From Pseudomonas silvicola (GTDB lineage: Bacteria; Pseudomonadota; Gammaproteobacteria; Pseudomonadales; Pseudomonadaceae), in contig NZ_CP093280.1 in the NCBI RefSeq assembly GCF_026651855.1, positions 2,830,001 to 2,894,000 on the forward strand: a DNA stretch of 64,000 nucleotides, in the 5' to 3' direction. A model generated the notes under the pieces. The model searched no databases. It was not told the origin of the DNA and saw only the letters and a program-made list of their open reading frames with translations. The position numbers and the translations under genes were made by a program. Positions 1 to 28,846 of this stretch are shown in pieces (positions within the stretch are counted from its first letter, which is position 1; each line of letters opens with the position of its first letter).

Positions 1-780
1 GTCGAAAGCCTCAATCAGACTGACAAGACCCAGCCTGCCATCCTGGCCGCCTCGGTGGCCCTGTGGCGCCTGTGGCTGGCCGAGGGCGGCGAAAAGCCGG
101 CCTTCGTCGCCGGTCACAGCCTGGGCGAGTACAGCGCGTTGGTGGCTGCTGGCTGCCTGTCGCTGGGCGACGCGGTCAAGCTGGTGGAGCGCCGCGGTCA
201 ACTGATGCAGGAGGCCGTTCCGGCCGGCCAGGGCGCCATGGCGGCGATCCTGGGCCTGGACGATGCCGTGGTGGTCAATGCCTGCGCCGAAGCGGCCCAG
301 GGCGAAGTGGTCAGCGCGGTGAACTTCAACTCCCCTGGCCAGGTGGTGATCGCCGGCGCGAAAGCGGCCGTGGAACGCGCCATCGAGCTGTGCAAGGCCG
401 CTGGTGCCAAGCGCGCCATGCCGTTGCCGGTCAGCGTGCCGTCGCACTGCGCGCTGATGAAGCCCGCCGCCGAGCGGTTCGCCGAATCCATCAACGCCAT
501 CGACTGGCAAGTGCCGCAGATCCCGGTGGTGCAGAACGTCAGCGCCGCCGTGCCGGCCGACCTCGACACCCTCAAGCGCGACCTGCTGGAACAGCTGTAC
601 AAGCCGGTTCGCTGGGTCGAGTCGGTGCAGTTCCTGGCCGCCCAGGGTGCGCCACGCCTGGTCGAATGCGGCCCGGGCAAGGTCCTGGCTGGCCTGAACA
701 AGCGCTGCGCCGAGGGCGTGAGCACTGAAAACCTGAATACCCCAGACGCCTTCGCCGCCGCCCGCGCGGCGCAGGCCTGA
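1..780 (+). CDS. fabD: Malonyl-CoA:ACP transacylase, 5' end missing
   Basis: FabD moves malonyl from CoA to acyl carrier protein, supplying extender units for cytosolic type II fatty acid synthesis. The reading frame is open from base 1, so the gene starts upstream of the window. The first visible residues, LNQTDKTQPAILAAS, are typical FabD sequence preceding the nucleophile. The nucleophile motif GHSLGEYSALVAAG follows at about residues 39-52 of the visible part, and the catalytic histidine sits in PSHCALMKPAAE. Roughly 50 N-terminal residues are missing. fabG begins 20 bp after the stop, as in the usual fab cluster. Confidence 0.97.
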   Translation, partial: VESLNQTDKTQPAILAASVALWRLWLAEGGEKPAFVAGHSLGEYSALVAAGCLSLGDAVKLVERRGQLMQEAVPAGQGAMAAILGLDDAVVVNACAEAAQGEVVSAVNFNSPGQVVIAGAKAAVERAIELCKAAGAKRAMPLPVSVPSHCALMKPAAERFAESINAIDWQVPQIPVVQNVSAAVPADLDTLKRDLLEQLYKPVRWVESVQFLAAQGAPRLVECGPGKVLAGLNKRCAEGVSTENLNTPDAFAAARAAQA

Positions 781-800
781 TACAGATAGGAGAAGCCTGC

Positions 801-1541
801 ATGAGCCTGCAAGGTAAAGTCGCACTGGTTACCGGCGCAAGCCGTGGCATTGGCCAGGCCATCGCCCTGGAACTGGGCCGCATGGGCGCTACCGTCATCG
901 GTACCGCCACCTCGGCTTCCGGTGCCGAGCGCATTGCCGCCACCCTCAAGGAAAATGGCGTGCAGGGCACCGGCCTCGAGCTGAATGTGACCAGCGACGA
1001 ATCCGTCGCCGCAGTCCTGGCTGCCATCACCGAACAGTTCGGCGCCCCTGCCATTCTGGTCAACAACGCCGGCATCACCCGCGACAATCTGATGCTGCGC
1101 ATGAAGGACGACGAATGGCATGATGTCATCGACACCAACCTCAACAGCCTGTACCGGCTGTCCAAGGGCGTGCTGCGCGGCATGACCAAGGCGCGCTGGG
1201 GTCGTATCATCAGCATTGGTTCGGTCGTCGGTGCCATGGGCAACGTCGGCCAGGTCAACTACGCTGCCGCCAAGGCGGGCCTGGAGGGCTTCAGCCGCGC
1301 GCTGGCCCGTGAAGTCGGCTCGCGTGCGATCACGGTCAACTCGGTGGCCCCTGGCTTCATCGACACCGACATGACCCGTGAACTGCCCGAAGCGCAGCGT
1401 GAAGCCTTGCAGACCCAGATTCCCCTGGGTCGCCTGGGCCAGGCCGAAGAAATCGCGAAAGTGGTGGCTTTCCTGGCCTCGGAAGGTGCAGCCTATGTCA
1501 CCGGTGCTACTATCCCGGTGAACGGCGGCATGTACATGTAA
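801..1541 (+). CDS. fabG: 3-oxoacyl-[ACP] reductase
   Basis: FabG is the NADPH-dependent short-chain dehydrogenase that reduces 3-ketoacyl-ACP to 3-hydroxyacyl-ACP. The cofactor loop TGASRGIGQ lies at residues 11-19. The catalytic triad appears as Ser141, Tyr154 and Lys158 in GSVVGAMGNVGQVNYAAAK. The C-terminus GATIPVNGGMYM is family-typical, and 246 residues is close to the usual length. A GGAGAAG-like ribosome site precedes the ATG. It lies 20 bp after fabD and 197 bp before acpP, which suggests acpP also has its own promoter in that gap. Confidence 0.98.
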   Translation: MSLQGKVALVTGASRGIGQAIALELGRMGATVIGTATSASGAERIAATLKENGVQGTGLELNVTSDESVAAVLAAITEQFGAPAILVNNAGITRDNLMLRMKDDEWHDVIDTNLNSLYRLSKGVLRGMTKARWGRIISIGSVVGAMGNVGQVNYAAAKAGLEGFSRALAREVGSRAITVNSVAPGFIDTDMTRELPEAQREALQTQIPLGRLGQAEEIAKVVAFLASEGAAYVTGATIPVNGGMYM

Positions 1542-1738
1542 GTGAAATGTGACGGATTGCTTCAAAAAAATGTCATACGTGCTGTCTAAAATCCGTTATA
1601 AAGCTGCAACCAAATTCTAGACAGCGGGCAGGTGTGATCGGGTGGTGACGCTTTCAGCTTGAAATGCCGAAGCCTTCCTATAAACTTACACACCGGCCAG
1701 CTGCCTGACTTATGTCCATTTAGGAGTGAAAACAAGGT

Positions 1739-1975
1739 ATGAGCACCATCGAAGAACGCGTCAAGAAAATCGTCGCCGAGCAACTGGGCGTTAAAGAAGA
1801 AGAAGTCGTGAACACTGCTTCCTTCGTTGAAGATCTGGGTGCCGATTCCCTTGACACCGTTGAGCTGGTGATGGCTCTGGAAGAGGAATTCGAGACTGAA
1901 ATCCCTGACGAAGAAGCTGAAAAAATCACTACTGTTCAAGCCGCTATCGATTACGTCACCAGCCACCAGGCTTAA
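1739..1975 (+). CDS. acpP: Acyl carrier protein
   Basis: Small acidic carrier of acyl chains in fatty acid synthesis, and acyl donor for lipid A and phospholipid synthesis. The 78 residues contain the phosphopantetheine site [10 protein letters not shown], with Ser37 as the modified residue. A TTTAGGAGTG ribosome site stands just upstream. Codon use is softer (more A/T) than in neighbours, as expected for a very highly expressed gene. The 197-bp leader holds an AT-rich stretch with TATAAA near 1597, a possible -10 element; no good -35 is seen. A strong terminator follows. Confidence 0.98.
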
Positions 1976-2003
1976 GACTGTGTAATCGCAGTTTCTTGCA
2001 TGG

Positions 2004-2039
2004 AAAAACCGCACTGCCATTGCTGGCGTGCGGTTTTTT
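2004..2039 (+). terminator. Rho-independent terminator after acpP
   Basis: An 11-bp perfect stem (2004-2014 with 2028-2038) continues with an inner GCCA/TGGC pairing and ends in a run of six T. It lies between the acpP stop and fabF, so it should attenuate read-through and let acpP be made in excess over fabF. Confidence 0.9.
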
Positions 2040-2085
2040 CTTTAGATGAGACGTAAAGAGTTGTTCCTAGAATAAGGAGAGCGCT

Positions 2086-3330
2086 GTGTCGCGTAGACGC
2101 GTCGTGGTCACCGGTATGGGTATGCTGTCGCCACTGGGCACGGACGTGCCGAGCAGTTGGCAGGGCATTCTGGCTGGCCGCAGTGGCATTGGTCTGATCG
2201 AGCATACCGACCTTTCTGCCTACTCCACCCGTTTTGGCGGCTCGGTCAAAGGCTTCAACGTCGAGGAGTACCTGTCGGTCAAGGAAGCCCGCAAGCTCGA
2301 CCTGTTCATTCAGTACGGCCTGGCGGCCGGTTTTCAAGCCGTGCGTAACGCCGGCCTGGAAGTGACCGATGCCAACCGTGAGCGCATTGGCGTGGCCATG
2401 GGCTCGGGTATCGGCGGGCTGACCAACATCGAGGAAACCTGCAAGATCCTGCACGCCTCCGGGCCCCGTCGGATTTCGCCGTTCTTCGTGCCGGGTTCGA
2501 TCATCAACATGATTTCCGGTTTCCTGTCCATCCACCTGGGTGTGCAGGGGCCTAACTATGCCATCGCCACGGCGTGCACCACCGGCACCCACTGCATTGG
2601 CATGGCTGCGCGCAACATCGCTTACGGCGAAGCCGACGTGATGATCGCCGGCGGCGCCGAGATGGCGGCCTGTGGCCTGGGCATGGGCGGCTTCGGTGCC
2701 TCGCGCGCGCTGTCCACCCGCAATGACGAGCCTACCCGGGCCAGCCGCCCGTGGGACAAGGGCCGTGATGGCTTCGTATTGTCCGACGGCGCCGGCGCGC
2801 TGGTGCTCGAAGAGCTGGAGCATGCCAAGGCCCGTGGCGCGACCATCCACGCCGAGCTGATCGGTTTTGGCATGAGCGGCGACGCCTACCACATGACCTC
2901 GCCGCCCGAAGATGGCGCCGGCGCGGCGCGCTGCATGGCCAACGCCCTGCGCGACGCCGGTGTCAATGGCAGCGACGTGCAGTACATCAATGCCCACGGC
3001 ACCTCTACTTCCGCCGGCGACCTGGCGGAAGCGTCGGCGATCAAGTCGGTGTTCGGCGACCATGCCTACCAGCTGGCGGTCAGTTCGACCAAATCGATGA
3101 CCGGTCACCTGCTGGGTGCCGCGGGCGCGGTGGAAGCGATCTTCAGTGTCCTGGCCATCAACAGCCAGGTCGCGCCGCCCACCATCAACCTGGACGAGCC
3201 CGACGAAGGCTGCGACCTGGACTTCGTTCCGCATCAGGCGCGCAACATGCCCATCGATGTGGTGCTGTCCAACTCGTTCGGCTTTGGTGGTACCAACGGC
3301 TCGCTGGTGTTCCGCCGGTTCAACGGTTGA
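2086..3330 (+). CDS. fabF: Beta-ketoacyl-ACP synthase II
   Basis: FabF condenses malonyl-ACP with acyl-ACP in chain elongation. It is a thiolase-fold protein of 414 residues. The nucleophile Cys164 is in TACTTGTH, and the active-site histidines are in [11 protein letters not shown] and [14 protein letters not shown]. The start is GTG at 2086 with AAGGAGAG about 6 bp upstream. The stop overlaps the pabC start (TGATG), indicating translational coupling. It follows the acpP terminator, so some expression probably comes from read-through. Confidence 0.98.
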
Positions 3331-4145
3331 TGTTCAGCTGGGTCGATGGCCAGCCGGCCGACACCCTCGCGGTGAAGAACCGGGGGCTGGCCTACGGCGA
3401 TGGGTTGTTCGAAACCATCGCTGTCACGTCGGGCAAGCCGGTTCTGCTGGCGCGTCACCTGCACCGCCTGGCGGAAGGTGGTGCGCGCCTTGCGATTGCC
3501 CTGGATGTCGGCCTGGTGGAGGGCGAACTGCTGGCCGCGGCCGCGCAGCTGGGTGAGGGCGTGCTCAAGCTCGTCGTCACCCGCGGCGATAGCCAGCGGG
3601 GTTACGCCGCCGATCCCCTGGCGCCACCCCGGCGCCTGGTGCTGGGCAACCCGCCCGTTGCCTACCCTGTTTCCTACGCCGAGCAGGGCGTTCGCCTGTT
3701 CGACTGCCAGACACGTCTGGCCGAGCAGCCGTTGCTCGCCGGCCTCAAGCACCTCAACCGTCTGGAGCAGGTGCTGGCTCGCGGCGAATGGAACAGCCCG
3801 GATTTTGCCGAAGGCCTGATGCGCGATACCTCCGGTCGGTTGATCGAAGGTGTTTTCAGCAACCTGTTCCTGGTGCACGACGGCCACCTGCTGACCGCCG
3901 ACCTGAGCCGCTGTGGCGTGGCGGGCGTCATGCGTGCCGAACTGCTGGCCCAGGCCGAGCGCCTGGGCATCAGCGTGCAGGTGCGCGACCTGTGGCCGGC
4001 CGACCTCGAGCGCGCCGACGAGGTCTTTGTCTGCAATAGCGTGTACGGGATCTGGCCTGTGTATGCTTTTGTTTCCCTGAACTGGTCTGCCGGGCCGCTC
4101 ACCCGTAAACTGCAGAGCCTTGCCCGCGCAGTATTGGATGTGTGA
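3330..4145 (+). CDS. pabC: Aminodeoxychorismate lyase
   Basis: PabC is a PLP-dependent fold IV enzyme that releases pyruvate from 4-amino-4-deoxychorismate to give p-aminobenzoate for folate. The N-terminus has WVDG and RGLAYGDGLFETI, and the PLP lysine lies in LKHLNRLEQVLAR. The ATG at 3330 overlaps the fabF stop; a TTG one codon earlier is possible but unnecessary. At 271 residues it has the usual length. It sits between fabF and mltG, its normal position in gamma-proteobacteria. Confidence 0.95.
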   Translation: MFSWVDGQPADTLAVKNRGLAYGDGLFETIAVTSGKPVLLARHLHRLAEGGARLAIALDVGLVEGELLAAAAQLGEGVLKLVVTRGDSQRGYAADPLAPPRRLVLGNPPVAYPVSYAEQGVRLFDCQTRLAEQPLLAGLKHLNRLEQVLARGEWNSPDFAEGLMRDTSGRLIEGVFSNLFLVHDGHLLTADLSRCGVAGVMRAELLAQAERLGISVQVRDLWPADLERADEVFVCNSVYGIWPVYAFVSLNWSAGPLTRKLQSLARAVLDV

Positions 4146-4148
4146 TTC

Positions 4149-6920
<2,772 letters not shown>

Positions 6921-6981
6921 AAAAGCGTGGCGGGGCGCGCCCAGGCGGGCCCTCGCAACCAGGCGCAATCAAGGAGTACTC

Positions 6982-7338
6982 ATGAATCAGCCAGTCAGTC
7001 CCGGCCCGCGCAACGGCATCCTGTCCCTGACCATCAAGGACAAGTCGGTGCTCTACGCAGCGTACATGCCCTTCATCAAGAACGGCGGGCTGTTCATTCC
7101 CACCACCAAGAGCTACAAGCTGGGTGATGAGTTGTTCATGCTGCTGAACCTGATGGATGAGCCGGAAAAAATCCCGGTGGCCGGCCGCGTGGCCTGGATC
7201 ACCCCCAAGGGCGCCCAGGGCAACCGTGCCGCGGGCGTCGGCGTGCAGTTCAACGATGGTGACAACACCGCGCGCAACAAGATCGAAACCTACCTGGCGG
7301 GCGCCATCAAGTCCGACCGCCCCACCCATACGATGTAA
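6982..7338 (+). CDS. pilZ: Type IV pilus PilZ protein
   Basis: PilZ supports type IV pilus assembly and twitching by acting with PilB and FimX in the cytoplasm. The protein has 118 residues, and the ATG at 6982 is preceded by CAAGGAGTAC. The PilZ beta-barrel is recognisable (GRVAWITP, AAGVGVQF). The RxxxR and D/NxSxxG residues used for c-di-GMP binding are not visible, as known for the founding PilZ of Pseudomonas. It follows holB by 61 bp and precedes the TatD-family gene by 8 bp. Confidence 0.95.
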   Translation: MNQPVSPGPRNGILSLTIKDKSVLYAAYMPFIKNGGLFIPTTKSYKLGDELFMLLNLMDEPEKIPVAGRVAWITPKGAQGNRAAGVGVQFNDGDNTARNKIETYLAGAIKSDRPTHTM

Positions 7339-7346
7339 GTTGCCCA

Positions 7347-8132
7347 ATGCCCATGCTTGTCGATTCCCACTGCCACCTCGATCGTCTGGACCTGGCCCAG
7401 CACGACGGTTCCCTTGATGCCGCCCTGCAGGCAGCCCGTGACCGCGGGGTAGGGCACTTCCTGTGCATCGGCGTCAGCGCCGACAACGCCGGCGCCGTCA
7501 AGGCCCTGGCCGAGCGCTACAGCGACGTGGACTGCTCGGTCGGTATCCACCCCCTGGACCTCAAACCCGGTGAAGCACCGGCGCTGCAGTGGCTGCTGGA
7601 CGAACTGGACCACCCCCGCGTGGTGGCCATCGGCGAAACCGGCCTGGACTACCACTACGAGCCGGAAGCGGCCGAGCTGCAGCAGGCGTCGTTCCGCCTG
7701 CATCTGCAAGCGGCCAAGGCCACCGGCAAGCCGGTGATCATCCACACCCGCGGCGCTCGCGCCGACACCCTCGAGCTGTTGCGCGAGGCGCAACTGCCCC
7801 AGGCCGGCGTGCTGCACTGTTTCACTGAAGACTGGGACATGGCCAAGGCGGCCCTGGACATGGGCTATTACATTTCCCTGTCCGGCATTGTCACCTTCCG
7901 CAACGCCGACGCCCTGCGCGACGTGGCGCGCCAAGTGCCCGCCGATCGTCTGCTGGTGGAAACCGACTCGCCCTACCTGGCGCCTATCCCGCACCGCGGC
8001 AAGCCCAACCTGCCGCAGTACGTGCGCGAAGTCGCCGAATTCCTGGCGCTGGTGCGTGGCGAGCGCTATGAGCAACTGGCCGAACAGACCACCGCCAACT
8101 TCAAGCGTCTGTTTCCCCTGGCCCACCTGTAG
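7347..8132 (+). CDS. TatD-family metal-dependent hydrolase (YcfH type)
   Basis: TatD-family proteins are TIM-barrel metal-dependent DNases or phosphoesterases. The metal ligands appear in order: VDSHCHLD at residues 4-11, GETGLDYHY, IIHTRGA, HCFTE and ETDSPYLAP. The length is 261 residues. It ends the fab-tmk-holB-pilZ transcription unit, and its 3' end faces the minus-strand sRNA terminator at 8159-8194. The exact substrate is not shown by the sequence. Confidence 0.93.
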   Translation: MPMLVDSHCHLDRLDLAQHDGSLDAALQAARDRGVGHFLCIGVSADNAGAVKALAERYSDVDCSVGIHPLDLKPGEAPALQWLLDELDHPRVVAIGETGLDYHYEPEAAELQQASFRLHLQAAKATGKPVIIHTRGARADTLELLREAQLPQAGVLHCFTEDWDMAKAALDMGYYISLSGIVTFRNADALRDVARQVPADRLLVETDSPYLAPIPHRGKPNLPQYVREVAEFLALVRGERYEQLAEQTTANFKRLFPLAHL

Positions 8133-8158
8133 GGACAGGGCTCGCCGGAATCACAGGC

Positions 8159-14777: not shown

Positions 14778-15714
14778 CGCCCGGTCCCACACGGTTGATG
14801 CCGCGTGCGGGTTTCGCGGTAGGACCGGGCGAAGCCCGGGAAGGCCACGCCGCGTTCTCCCTGACGCACCGCGGCGCCCGTTTCCCGAGCTGTCGCCCGG
14901 TCCCACAGGGTGGCGGCGGTTGGAATTACCTTGTGGGACCGGGCGAAGCTCGGGAAGGCCACGCCGCGTTCTCCCTGACGCACCGCGGCGCCCGCTTCCC
15001 GAGCTGTCGCCCGGTCCCACAGAGGATGGCGGCGGTGGTGGGAATTACCTTGTGGGACCGGGCGAAGCTCGGGAAGGCCACGCCGCGTTCCGCCTGACGC
15101 ACCGCGGCGCCCGGTTCCCGAGCTGTCGCCCGGTCCTACCGAGGATGGCGGCGGTGGTGGAAATTATCTTGTGGGACCGGGCGAAGCTCGGGAAGGCCGC
15201 GCCGCGTTCTCCCTGACGCACCGCGGCGCCCGCTTCCCGAGCTGTCGCCCGGTCCTACCGAGGATGGCGGCGGTGGTGGGAATTATCTTGTGGGACCGGG
15301 CGAAGCTCGGGAAGGCCACGCCGCGTTCTCCCTGACGCACCGCGGCGCCCGCTTCCCGAGCTGTCGCCCGGTCCTACCGAGGATGGCGGCGGCGGTTGGA
15401 ATTACCTTGTGGGACCGGGCGAAGCTCGGGAAGGCCGCGCCGCGTTCTCCCTGACGCACCGCGGCGCCCGCTTCCCGAGCTGTCGCCCGGTCCTACCGAG
15501 GATGGCGGCGGTGGTGGGAATTACCTTGTGGGACCGGGCGAAGCTCGGGAAGGCCGCGCCGCGTTCTCCCTGACGCACCGCGGCGCCCGCTTCCCGAGCT
15601 GTCGCCCGGTCCTACCGAGGATGGCGGCGGCGGTTGGAATTACCTTGTGGGACCGGGCGAAGCCCGGGAAGGCCGCGCCGCGTTCCACCTGACGCACCAC
15701 AGCGCCCGGTCCTC
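14778..15714. repeat. Tandem array of REP-like palindromes, 119-bp period
   Basis: This 0.94-kb gene-free stretch holds eight copies of a palindromic unit. The TGGGACCGGGCGAAG core (TAGGACCGGGCGAAG in the first copy) starts at 14820, 14934, 15053, 15172, 15291, 15410, 15529 and 15648. The first step is 114 bp and the other six are exactly 119 bp. Each unit has two inverted REP-like arms (GGACCGGGCGAAGCTCGGGA and, reversed, GGACCGGGCGACAGCTCGGG) around an inner CGCCGCG/CGCGGCG stem, then a GGCGGCGG-rich linker. The end copies carry GAAGCCCGGG instead of GAAGCTCGGG, and the last is cut short. The frames open through it are a by-product of the period. Confidence 0.95.
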
Positions 15715-26105: not shown

Positions 26106-26192
26106 CCCTTCTCGATGAATGAGTGGTACAGTCGGGATAGATCGCTAGCTAACTATCCGCACGCTGGCCCGCTCATCAAAGGAGTGTTCGTG

Positions 26193-26804
26193 ATGCCAAT
26201 GAAACGCCTGTTCTGCGCTTCCACCCTTGCCCTGGCGGTGTTTGCCAGTGCCGGGCTGCAGGCCGCCGATGCCCCGCCCTCGGGCGTGCGCGGCGCCATC
26301 ACCGCGGTCAACGGTGACGACCTGCAGGTCAAGACCAACCGTGGCGAAGACGTGGTGGTACACCTCACCGCTGACACCCAGGTGCGTGGTGTGACGTTGG
26401 CCAATATCGCTGACATCAAGCCCGGCAGTTACGTAGGTTCCGCGGCCGTGCCCCAGGCCGACGGCACCCTCAAGGCCCTGGAAGTGCATGTGTTCCCGCC
26501 GTCCATGGCCGGCACTGGTGATGGCCACCGCGCCTTCGACCTGGCGAGCAACAGCAGCATGACCAACGGCAGCGTCGGCGACCTGGTGGTGGCGAACGGG
26601 CGAACCATCACGGTGAAGTACAAGGGCGGCGAGCAGAAGATCCTGGTGCCGGATGACGTACCGGTGGTGAACCTGGTGCCGGCTGATCGCAGCTTGCTGA
26701 AGCCTGGGGTGAAGGTCGTGCTGTTTGCGCAGAAAGCGGCGGATGGCAGCTACACGGCCAAGGCTATTTCGGCGGGCGAGAATGGCTTGAAGCCGCCGAT
26801 GTAG
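26193..26804 (+). CDS. Exported DUF5666-like protein (intact copy)
   Basis: Protein of 203 residues with a signal peptide cleaved near LQAADA (residues 22-27). The mature part has two similar beta-rich halves beginning GVRGAITAVNGDDLQVKTNRG and GSVGDLVVANGRTITVKYKGG, typical of DUF5666/OB-like repeat proteins. Function is unknown; automated databases sometimes mislabel such proteins as metal-transport components. The ATG at 26193 follows AAAGGAG by 8 bp. The last 118 codons are duplicated at 27401-27755. Confidence 0.8.
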   Translation: MPMKRLFCASTLALAVFASAGLQAADAPPSGVRGAITAVNGDDLQVKTNRGEDVVVHLTADTQVRGVTLANIADIKPGSYVGSAAVPQADGTLKALEVHVFPPSMAGTGDGHRAFDLASNSSMTNGSVGDLVVANGRTITVKYKGGEQKILVPDDVPVVNLVPADRSLLKPGVKVVLFAQKAADGSYTAKAISAGENGLKPPM

Positions 26805-26811
26805 GCCTCGC

Positions 26812-26876
26812 GTCGCGCCGTTCCCCCAGGGTTCGTTTACCCTGTGGGACCGGGCGAAGCGCGGGAAAAGCGCGAC
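26812..26876. repeat. Intergenic palindrome, copy 1
   Basis: Nested pairings GTCGCGC (26812-26818) with GCGCGAC (26870-26876) and an inner CAGGGT/ACCCTG stem. It includes TGTGGGACCGGGCGAAG, the same arm as in the 14.8-kb array. It lies between the convergent DUF5666-like gene and the sbp fragment and resembles a two-way terminator or REP remnant. Confidence 0.65.
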
Positions 26877-26893
26877 ACGACTCTCACGTCAGG

Positions 26894-27413
26894 TTATTGC
26901 TGGCTATAGATCTGATCAAACACCCCACCATCGGCAAAGTGGGTTTTCTGCACGGTGCGCCAGTCGCCAAAGGTCTTTTCCACCGACAGGAAGTCGACCT
27001 TGGGGAAGCGGTCCTGGTATTTGGCCAGCACCGCCGGGTCACGCGGGCGCAGGTAGTTCTGTGCGGCAATGTCCTGGCCTTCCGGCGACCACAGGTAGTT
27101 CAGGTATGCCTCGGCCAGGGCCCGGCTGCCTTTCTTGTCCACCACCTTGTCGACCACCGCCACGGGCGGTTCGGCTTCGGCGGAGACGCTGGGGTAGATC
27201 ACCTCGAACTTGTCACGGCCAAATTCGCGGGCAATCATTTCCGCTTCGTTCTCGAAGGTCACCAGCACGTCGCCGATCTGGTTGGTCATGAAGGTGGTGG
27301 TGGCGCCACGGCCACCGGTGTCCAGCACCGGCACGTGCTTGAACAGCTGGCCGACGAACGCCTTGGCCTTGTTCTCGTCACCGCCGTTCTTCAGCGCGTA
27401 GCCCCAGGCCGAC
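26894..27413 (-). pseudogene. Truncated sbp copy (C-terminal half only)
   Basis: Encodes the last roughly 172 residues of a sulfate-binding protein and then runs at 27413 into antisense DUF5666 sequence. Signal peptide and N-terminal lobe are missing. The frame itself is intact. Compared with the full gene at 27845-28846 it differs at 12 bases, of which 8 are silent; four change residues (Asp/Glu, Arg/Gln, Asn/Lys, Gln/Pro). No start or ribosome site is evident, so it is unlikely to make a functional protein. Confidence 0.88.
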
Positions 27414-27755
27414 GGCACCCTCAAGGCCCTGGAAGTGCATGTGTTCCCGCCGTCCATGGCCGGCACTGGTGATGGCCACCGCGCCTTCGACCTGGCGAGC
27501 AACAGCAGCATGACCAACGGCAGCGTCGGCGACCTGGTGGTGGCGAACGGGCGAACCATCACGGTGAAGTACAAGGGCGGCGAGCAGAAGATCCTGGTGC
27601 CGGATGACGTACCGGTGGTGAACCTGGTGCCGGCTGATCGCAGCTTGCTGAAGCCTGGGGTGAAGGTCGTGCTGTTTGCGCAGAAAGCGGCGGATGGCAG
27701 CTACACGGCCAAGGCTATTTCGGCGGGCGAGAATGGCCTGAAGCCGCCGATGTAG
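27401..27755 (+). pseudogene. Truncated DUF5666-like copy (C-terminal part)
   Basis: The last 118 codons of the gene at 26193-26804, created by the tandem duplication. Signal peptide and first half are absent. It differs from the parent by a single base (C for T in a Leu codon, silent). An internal ATG at 27435 is in frame, but no ribosome site precedes it, so it is treated as a remnant. Confidence 0.88.
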
Positions 27756-27762
27756 CAGCCGT

Positions 27763-27827
27763 GTCGCGCCGTTCCCGCAGGGTTCGTTTACCCTGTGGGA
27801 CCCCGCGAAGCGCGGGAAAAGCGCGAC
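27763..27827. repeat. Intergenic palindrome, copy 2
   Basis: The duplicate of the element at 26812-26876, with GTCGCGC and GCGCGAC ends kept. Here the arm reads GGGACCCCGCGAAGCGCGGG, which pairs better (CCCGCG/CGCGGG) than copy 1. It lies between the DUF5666 remnant and the functional sbp. Confidence 0.65.
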
Positions 27828-27844
27828 ACGAATCTCAAGCCAGG

Positions 27845-28846
27845 TTATTGCGGGCTGTAGATCTGATCAAACACCCCGCCATCGGCAAAGTGGGTTTTCT
27901 GCACGGTGCGCCAGTCGCCAAAGGTCTTTTCCACCGACAGGAAGTCGACCTTGGGGAAGCGGTCCTGGTATTTGGCCAACACCGCCGGGTCACGCGGGCG
28001 CAAGTAGTTCTGCGCGGCAATGTCCTGGCCTTCCGGCGACCACAGGTACTTCAGGTAAGCCTCGGCCAGGGCCTGGCTGCCTTTCTTCTCCACCACCTTG
28101 TCGACCACGGCCACGGGCGGTTCGGCTTCGGCGGAGACGCTAGGGTAGATCACCTCGAACTTGTCACGGCCAAATTCGCGGGCAATCATTTCCGCTTCGT
28201 TCTCGAAGGTCACCAGCACGTCGCCGATCTGGTTGGTCATGAAGGTGGTGGTGGCGCCACGGCCACCGGTGTCCAGCACCGGCACGTGCTTGAACAGCTG
28301 GCCGACGAACGCCTTGGCCTTGTTCTCGTCACCGCCGTTCTTCAGCGCGTAGCCCCAGGCCGACAGGTAGGTGTAGCGGCCGTTGCCGCTGGTCTTGGGG
28401 TTGGGCACGATCACCTGCACGCCGTCCTTGACCAGGTCGTTCCAGTCCTTCAGACCCTTGGGGTTGCCCTTGCGCACGATGAATACCGTGGCAGAGGTAA
28501 AGGGCGCGCTGTTATTGGGCAGGCGTGTCACCCAGTTGTCGGGTACCAGCTTGCCATTATCGGCCAGGGCATTGATGTCGGTGGCCATGTTCATGGTGAT
28601 GACGTCAGCAGGCAGGCCATCGATCACCGCGCGCGCCTGTTTGCTGGAACCACCGAAGGACATCTGCACGGTGACCTTGTCGTCGGCGTGCTCGGCCTGC
28701 CAGTGTTTCTGGAACGCAGCGTTGTAGTCCTTGTAGAAGTCGCGCATCACGTCGTAGGAAACGTTCAGCAGCGGCGGCGCCGCCTGGGCCAGGCCGGCCA
28801 GCCCCAGGCCGGCGGCGAGCAACGAAGCGCTCAAGAGTTTATGCAT
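27845..28846 (-). CDS. sbp: Sulfate ABC transporter substrate-binding protein
   Basis: Periplasmic sulfate/thiosulfate-binding protein of 333 residues, delivering anion to a CysTWA permease encoded elsewhere. The signal peptide ends near AQAAPP (residues 20-25). The family signatures are YDVMRDFYKDYN, SFGGSSKQARAV and PKTSGNGRYTYLSAWG. The start is ATG at 28846, with a weak CAGGA site. The permease genes are not adjacent, so it is a solitary binding-protein gene like Sbp of other pseudomonads. Its 3' half was copied by the 951-bp duplication. Confidence 0.93.
   Translation of the reverse strand: MHKLLSASLLAAGLGLAGLAQAAPPLLNVSYDVMRDFYKDYNAAFQKHWQAEHADDKVTVQMSFGGSSKQARAVIDGLPADVITMNMATDINALADNGKLVPDNWVTRLPNNSAPFTSATVFIVRKGNPKGLKDWNDLVKDGVQVIVPNPKTSGNGRYTYLSAWGYALKNGGDENKAKAFVGQLFKHVPVLDTGGRGATTTFMTNQIGDVLVTFENEAEMIAREFGRDKFEVIYPSVSAEAEPPVAVVDKVVEKKGSQALAEAYLKYLWSPEGQDIAAQNYLRPRDPAVLAKYQDRFPKVDFLSVEKTFGDWRTVQKTHFADGGVFDQIYSPQ

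What the first reader, a model, noticed from the sequence alone, without database searches (positions are those of the whole stretch)
26450..28364. 951-bp tandem duplication with a mosaic divergence pattern
Two direct copies of exactly 951 bp join at GCCCCAGGCCGAC, a 13-bp sequence already present in both parent genes, so the event looks like illegitimate recombination at a short homology. The differences are not spread evenly: 338 bp at one end and about 210 bp at the other are identical, while about 24 substitutions fall in the roughly 405 bp between. In the sbp part 8 of 12 changes are silent, as if that block diverged while coding. This fits a recent duplication followed by replacement of the middle block in one copy by DNA from a related strain. 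Gene conversion at the ends only, or an assembly chimera, are alternatives.
Basis: partly seen in the sequence, partly recalled or inferred. Interest (0 to 1): 0.75.

Follow-up and report, generated by a model that had tools for sequence, protein, structure and literature searches.

The report
Short-homology tandem duplication, mosaic middle
A Pseudomonas chromosome carries a 951-base stretch twice in a row, joined at a 13-base repeat; only the middle differs between the two copies, as if exchanged with a related strain, and it is one of an unusually dense set of such duplications in the part of this genome that was examined.

Summary
In detail: 26450-27400 and 27401-28351 are head-to-tail 951-bp copies joined at a 13-bp repeat present in both parent genes. 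All 24 substitutions lie in positions 338-742; there are no indels. The nearest relative found (G307, about 94%) has one copy, so the duplication arose in this lineage. Uneven constraint does not explain the clustering (P about 5e-7 given G307's local rates). No donor was found: the genome holds no second template, and each block is as far from G307 (27 and 26 of 405) as from its twin (24 of 405). Exchange of the middle block by homologous recombination, before or after duplication, fits best but is not proved. Unexpectedly, the pair is one of 14 local direct duplications in 1.464 Mb of this chromosome; the same criterion finds none in 1.70 Mb of control sequence, mostly Pseudomonas. The 11 joints that could be scored carry 10-18 bp of exact homology. 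Either this lineage gains or keeps such duplications unusually often, or the assembly is at fault; reads are needed. The pair alone is an ordinary kind of event.

The parts
26450..27400 (.). Left copy of the 951-bp unit: 3' part of the full upstream gene, intergenic stretch, 3' 507 bp of sbp as a truncated fragment
27401..28351 (.). Right copy of the unit: 3' fragment of the upstream gene, intergenic stretch, 3' 507 bp of the intact sbp
26450..26462 (.). 13-bp parent repeat in the upstream gene (GCCCCAGGCCGAC)
27401..27413 (.). Novel joint: 13-bp repeat linking the truncated sbp to the upstream-gene fragment
28352..28364 (.). 13-bp parent repeat in sbp
26787..27191 (.). Divergent block, left copy (copy positions 338-742); 24 differences to its twin in 405 bp
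27738..28142 (.). Divergent block, right copy
26115..26804 (+). Intact upstream gene, listed as a 229-aa ORF; by my reading of the sequence the start is probably the ATG at 26193 (203 aa). Not named by any search
27845..28846 (-). Intact sbp, 333 aa, sulfate ABC transporter substrate-binding protein (name from annotated plasmid relatives)

Best explanation
A recent head-to-tail duplication formed in this lineage when replication or repair joined two copies of a 13-bp sequence, one in the upstream gene and one in sbp. Both flanking genes stayed intact, because each keeps one full copy across the unit's boundary, so the event was probably close to neutral and left two gene fragments in the middle. 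The two copies came to differ only in a block of about 405 bp, by homologous recombination with an allele from another strain of the same species complex. Either one copy took in the block after the duplication, or the duplication itself joined two chromosomes that already differed there. Shown: the duplication, the joint, single copy in G307, the clustering. Inferred: the order of events, the exchange, the donor and its identity.
For: Single copy and collinear order in G307. Exact 13-bp joint. 24 of 24 differences in one block, P 5e-7 against uneven rates. No template elsewhere in the genome; the next long match is a 70% sbp paralogue. In the sbp half of the block, left, right and G307 form one supported clade (96/95), unresolved inside, which places both versions in the same species complex. 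In that half the right version is the longer branch (0.031 against 0.012), the opposite of what free decay of the left fragment would give. Ten other joints in the same chromosome have the same short-homology form.
Against: No donor found: over the whole block neither version is closer to any sequence seen than to its twin. In the intergenic part alone (positions 338-444) both copies are closer to G307 (right 5/107, left 8/107) than to each other (12/107). The polarity is mixed: in 338-478 the right copy matches G307 at 10 of 14 informative sites, in 579-742 the left does at 6 of 7 (Fisher P 0.024), so one clean import into one copy may be too simple. The assembly itself is untested.
Confidence: 0.6

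Rival explanations
1. Assembly fault: two alleles from a mixed culture, or a mis-join at the 13-bp repeat, laid head to tail. The form (identical end, allele 1, identical end, identical end, allele 2, identical end) is what a graph bubble written out twice would look like.
For: The genome's contamination estimate is 8.04% against 2% for G307. Local direct duplications are dense in this assembly (14 loci against 0 in controls).
Against: The genome stands in three contigs. Exact homology at the 11 scored joints varies from 10 to 18 bp, not one fixed word length. Several pairs carry differences inside the copies (24, 7, 7, 1 and 1 among them), which a loop walked twice would not give. The three intragenic duplications keep the reading frame, 3 of 3. 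The high contamination value could also follow from many real partial gene copies (inference).
Confidence: 0.22
2. Old duplication: the copies diverged by about 6% over their whole length, and gene conversion later made both ends identical.
For: Gene conversion between tandem copies is well known; divergence between the twins is close to that from G307.
Against: Needs two separate conversions, at both outer ends, and none in between. G307 has a single copy. recA is present and open, so from general knowledge a 951-bp direct repeat should be lost long before 6% divergence. In the sbp half the left fragment shows fewer unique changes than the intact right copy; in the intergenic part the left differs slightly more from G307 (8 against 5 of 107).
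Confidence: 0.1
3. One step: incoming DNA from a relative recombined by homology on one side and by the 13-bp repeat on the other (homology-facilitated illegitimate recombination, or a transformation merodiploid).
For: The mechanism is described for transformable bacteria; a Pseudomonas case (Pseudomonas stutzeri) is in the reference list of PMC3784515, of which I saw passages.
Against: Foreign DNA should lie next to the joint; here 209 and 337 identical bp separate the block from it, so an extra event is needed.
Confidence: 0.08

Closest known systems
Spontaneous tandem duplications at short direct repeats in Salmonella (PMC3411829, abstract and passages seen)
   Same: Direct orientation and short homology at the joint; in that study 5 of 8 tested duplication joints were confirmed and the deduced cut-off was at least 11 bp; here 13 bp
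   Different: There they are rare variants in a growing culture; here they stand in an assembled genome, many of them, and one pair has a divergent block
Merodiploids made by transformation in Streptococcus pneumoniae (PMC3784515, passages seen)
   Same: Tandem duplications that can hold two alleles
   Different: There the repeats are partial IS copies and the unit described is 107.4 kb; here 13 bp and 951 bp, and no divergent DNA beside the joint
165-kb direct tandem duplication in Pseudomonas syringae DC3000 (PMC3916326, search listing and start of abstract only)
   Same: Direct tandem duplication in the genus
   Different: Far larger; its joint was not read here

Membership tests
Short-homology tandem duplication | Two head-to-tail copies in direct orientation without spacer | tested here: met
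   period 951, copies abut
Short-homology tandem duplication | Short repeat shared by both parent sites at the joint | tested here: met
   13 bp exact
Short-homology tandem duplication | Single-copy ancestral state in a close relative | tested here: met
   G307 collinear, one copy
Import by homologous recombination from another strain | Block sharply bounded by identical sequence | tested here: met
Import by homologous recombination from another strain | Block closer to a donor lineage than to its twin | tested here: inconclusive
   over the whole block not closer to the one close relative; no other strain of the species was found
Ectopic gene conversion within the genome | A template elsewhere in the same genome | tested here: not met
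   next long match is 70%
Homology-facilitated illegitimate recombination | Donor DNA adjoining the illegitimate joint | tested here: not met
   209 and 337 bp identical on either side of the joint
Assembly artefact | No single read spans both copies | not testable with these tools
   No reads available

The most novel reading that the evidence does not exclude
This Pseudomonas lineage gains or keeps kilobase-scale tandem duplications at 10-18-bp homologies far more than its relatives, perhaps dozens per chromosome, and these serve as temporary two-allele loci: extra copies that take in blocks from other strains while the working gene stays safe. The given pair, with a 6% block between identical ends, would be a snapshot of that process.
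Probability: 0.15. Interest if true: 0.8.

Novelty: new member of a known kind. Interest (0 to 1): 0.42.

Why it matters
One tandem duplication at a short repeat is ordinary. What matters is the set: if 14 of them in 1.46 Mb are real, this strain is a natural setting for asking what makes such duplications form or persist, a question the papers seen here approach through rare variants in cultures. If they are assembly faults, a public species-representative genome contains many false partial genes, which might also account for its 8% contamination value. Either answer is useful and could come from one long-read data set.

Tried and rejected
Template elsewhere in the genome: rejected. Template on plasmids: the best plasmid matches are 83.9% and 83.8%, to sbp, in Pseudomonas aeruginosa. 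Donor among genome collections: searches of 57, 398, 397, 309 and 392 genomes (overlapping draws, the last reaching into 90 genera and apparently without G307, which it does not list) gave nothing closer than G307. One search matched sbp in 341 of 398 genomes; after G307 the next by identity were G407 and G106, at 90 and 89% over sbp. A scan of another genome collection with the upstream gene (80 best loci kept) gave at best 93% at protein level, in the record of gamma proteobacterium L18.

A repair defect as cause of the set: mutS, recA and the family PF08411 (exonuclease I by recall) are present and open in both G000 and G307; recBCD, recJ, sbcCD and mutL were not checked. A common genus feature: not seen in the sample (0 in 1.70 Mb). 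That sample is 400 kb each of G307 and G005 plus 136 short loci, some from the same species, many from this same locus, about a dozen of them not named as Pseudomonas, so it is not independent, and short loci can miss long periods.

Rows dropped from the count of 14: one search lists 17 rows for G000; one (3379713) is a 124-bp array, and two loci give two rows each. In C1:5.0-5.2 Mb one array of period 380 passes the criterion and no two-copy duplication does (1.9 expected, chance of none 0.15), so the density may be regional. Repeats below the criterion: an 87% pair at C1:5069249, tandem tRNA-like repeats at 2805835 and 2806432 (tRNA by my reading), repeats of mixed kind in 20 kb at 7.30 Mb, and none of 200 bp or more at 90% in the first 20 kb of C2 and C3. 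In one search three further duplications (2750441, 3322752, 3404595) found no counterpart in the 400-kb G307 block beyond short repeats, so their ancestral state was not tested.

Literature: six searches (one search showed 15 of 50 papers, one search found none). By titles and starts of abstracts none describes a bacterial genome rich in short-homology tandem duplications; the library holds open-licence papers only.

Full report
What is there. The window is C1:2830001-2894000 of a genome of 8,650,947 bases in three contigs (7,613,303, 952,764 and 84,880). At 26450-28351 two copies of 951 bp lie head to tail without a spacer. They differ at 24 positions and by no indel. The first difference is at copy position 338 and the last at 742, so 337 bp at one end and 209 bp at the other are identical. 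The joint is GCCCCAGGCCGAC, which also stands at the start of the left copy inside the upstream gene and just after the right copy inside sbp. The upstream gene (a 229-aa ORF on the + strand, probably 203 aa from an ATG at 26193) is intact at the left, sbp (333 aa, - strand) is intact at the right, and between them lie a 507-bp piece of sbp and a piece of the upstream gene. Twelve codons differ in the sbp part, 8 silently and 4 not.

The ancestral state. The nearest relative found, G307, has one copy in the same gene order; identity is 94.5% over 1760 bp of a single-copy query and 96% to the right copy with its flank. In G307 the two parent sites read GCCTCAGGCTGAC and GCCCCAGGCTGAC, 12 of 13 alike. 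The duplication therefore most likely arose in the lineage of the window.

Why the clustering matters. Against G307 the three segments differ at 18 of 337, 27 (left) or 26 (right) of 405, and 4 of 209 positions. So the ends are not frozen; the chance that all 24 twin differences fall in the middle is about 5e-7 with these rates. The twins differ at 24 of 405 positions in the block, nearly as much as each differs from G307. In the sbp half they are closer to each other (12 of 298) than to G307 (19 and 21); in the intergenic part they are further from each other (12 of 107) than from G307 (8 and 5). The genome has no other copy that could have served as template; the next long match is a 70% sbp paralogue. 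In the sbp half a tree puts left, right and G307 in one supported clade (96/95), unresolved within; the right branch is the longer one (0.031 against 0.012). Both versions thus appear to come from the same species complex and not from a distant donor.

Direction. With G307 as reference, in positions 338-478 the right copy keeps the G307 base at 10 of 14 informative sites, in 579-742 the left copy does at 6 of 7 (Fisher P 0.024). The three sites where neither copy matches G307 (359, 649, 658) are left out of these counts. I cannot say which copy holds the foreign block; it may itself be of two parts.

The wider set. Self-comparison of 1,464,000 contiguous bases of the same chromosome (C1:2350001-3814000) by one criterion (direct, at least 500 bp aligned, at least 97%, start to start 300-10,000 bp) gives 17 rows. 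After removal of one 124-bp array and merging of two double rows these are 14 loci, the given one included. The same criterion gives none in 400 kb of G307, 400 kb of G005 and 136 loci (900 kb), most of them Pseudomonas. A plain rate comparison gives P 2e-5, or 4e-5 without the given locus. In 200 kb elsewhere on the chromosome (C1:5.0-5.2 Mb) only a short-period array passes.

Eleven of the 14 have a joint that I could score. From its printed lines I read exact homology between the parent sites of 10 bp in two (2463455, 2997627), 11 in one, 13 in three, 14 in three and 18 in two. Four of four that could be tested are single-copy in G307: this one and 2997627, 2499000, 2617467. Three lie within one predicted gene, and all three keep it open: 2678504 with period 768, 3745537 with period 696, and 2997627, whose period of 596 is offset by a one-base difference at the joint. 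For 3619193 and 3631681 no gene was predicted inside the unit. Two loci (2750441, 3322752) have the form A-B-C-A-C, a duplication whose second copy lacks the middle. Copies are otherwise nearly identical. Two more pairs show clustered differences: 7 in 2413 bp at 2499000, all A/G transitions, and 7 in 2127 bp at 2617467, six of them within 177 bp (largest-gap tests P 0.004 and 0.001 on circular positions, 0.002 and 0.15 on linear positions). Of the 14, the given pair alone has a block of several per cent.

Real or artefact. For an artefact speak the high contamination value and the restriction, in this sample, to one assembly. Against it speak the varied homology lengths at the joints, the differences between copies, and the kept reading frames. 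No reads were available. I put the artefact at about one in five.

How it works. Joints of 11 bp or more at direct repeats are what confirmed spontaneous duplications in Salmonella show (PMC3411829, passages); two of the joints here, at 10 bp, fall just under that. Transformation can make duplications that hold two alleles (PMC3784515, passages), but there the donor fragment bridges the joint, whereas here the block lies 209 and 337 bp away from it. The most economical account is therefore two events: a duplication at the 13-bp repeat, and an exchange of the middle block by ordinary homologous recombination with another strain, in either order. recA, mutS and the family PF08411 (exonuclease I by recall) are present and open, so none of these three explains the set.

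Verdict. The pair is a new member of a known kind. The dense set around it is the unexpected part and deserves reads.

Noticed in passing
G000:C1:2350001-3814000 (window is C1:2830001-2894000): Thirteen further local direct duplications at C1 starts 2463455, 2499000, 2576912, 2617467, 2678504, 2750441, 2997627, 3322752, 3404595, 3565346, 3619193, 3631681, 3745537; periods 596 to 8158.
   Followed up: partly
G000:C1:2750441-2754087 and 3322752-3325781: Two duplications of the form A-B-C-A-C, the second copy lacking the middle; at 2750441 this leaves what looks like an in-frame fusion ORF of 162 aa.
   Followed up: partly
G000:C1:2678504-2680059 and 3745537-3746968: In-frame internal duplications (768 and 696 bp) inside genes that look like a phosphotransferase with repeated domains and a two-domain ABC ATPase (names are my reading of the sequence, no family search), giving ORFs of 751 and 715 aa.
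   Followed up: partly
G000:C1:2576912-2581432: A 1972-bp duplication repeating a 352-aa ORF that looks like ruvB next to ruvC and ruvA (names recalled from sequence, not searched); 577-bp spacer.
   Followed up: no
window 14822-15708: Tandem array of 119-bp units, 7.5 copies, 95% matches, with weaker relatives (about 80%) near C1:2971667.
   Followed up: no
window about 26804-26888: The intergenic part of the block contains a short repeat family: 51 of the 54 matches listed for the region in the genome fall there. It looks like a REP-type element; that label is recalled, not tested.
   Followed up: no
G000:C1:2384528, 2784253, 3444188: Three copies of a 1235-bp sequence, 100% identical, one inverted; probably an insertion sequence, not identified.
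   Followed up: no
G000:C1:3074132-3080623 and 3730744-3737220: A 6.5-kb stretch in two places 657 kb apart at 92%.
   Followed up: no
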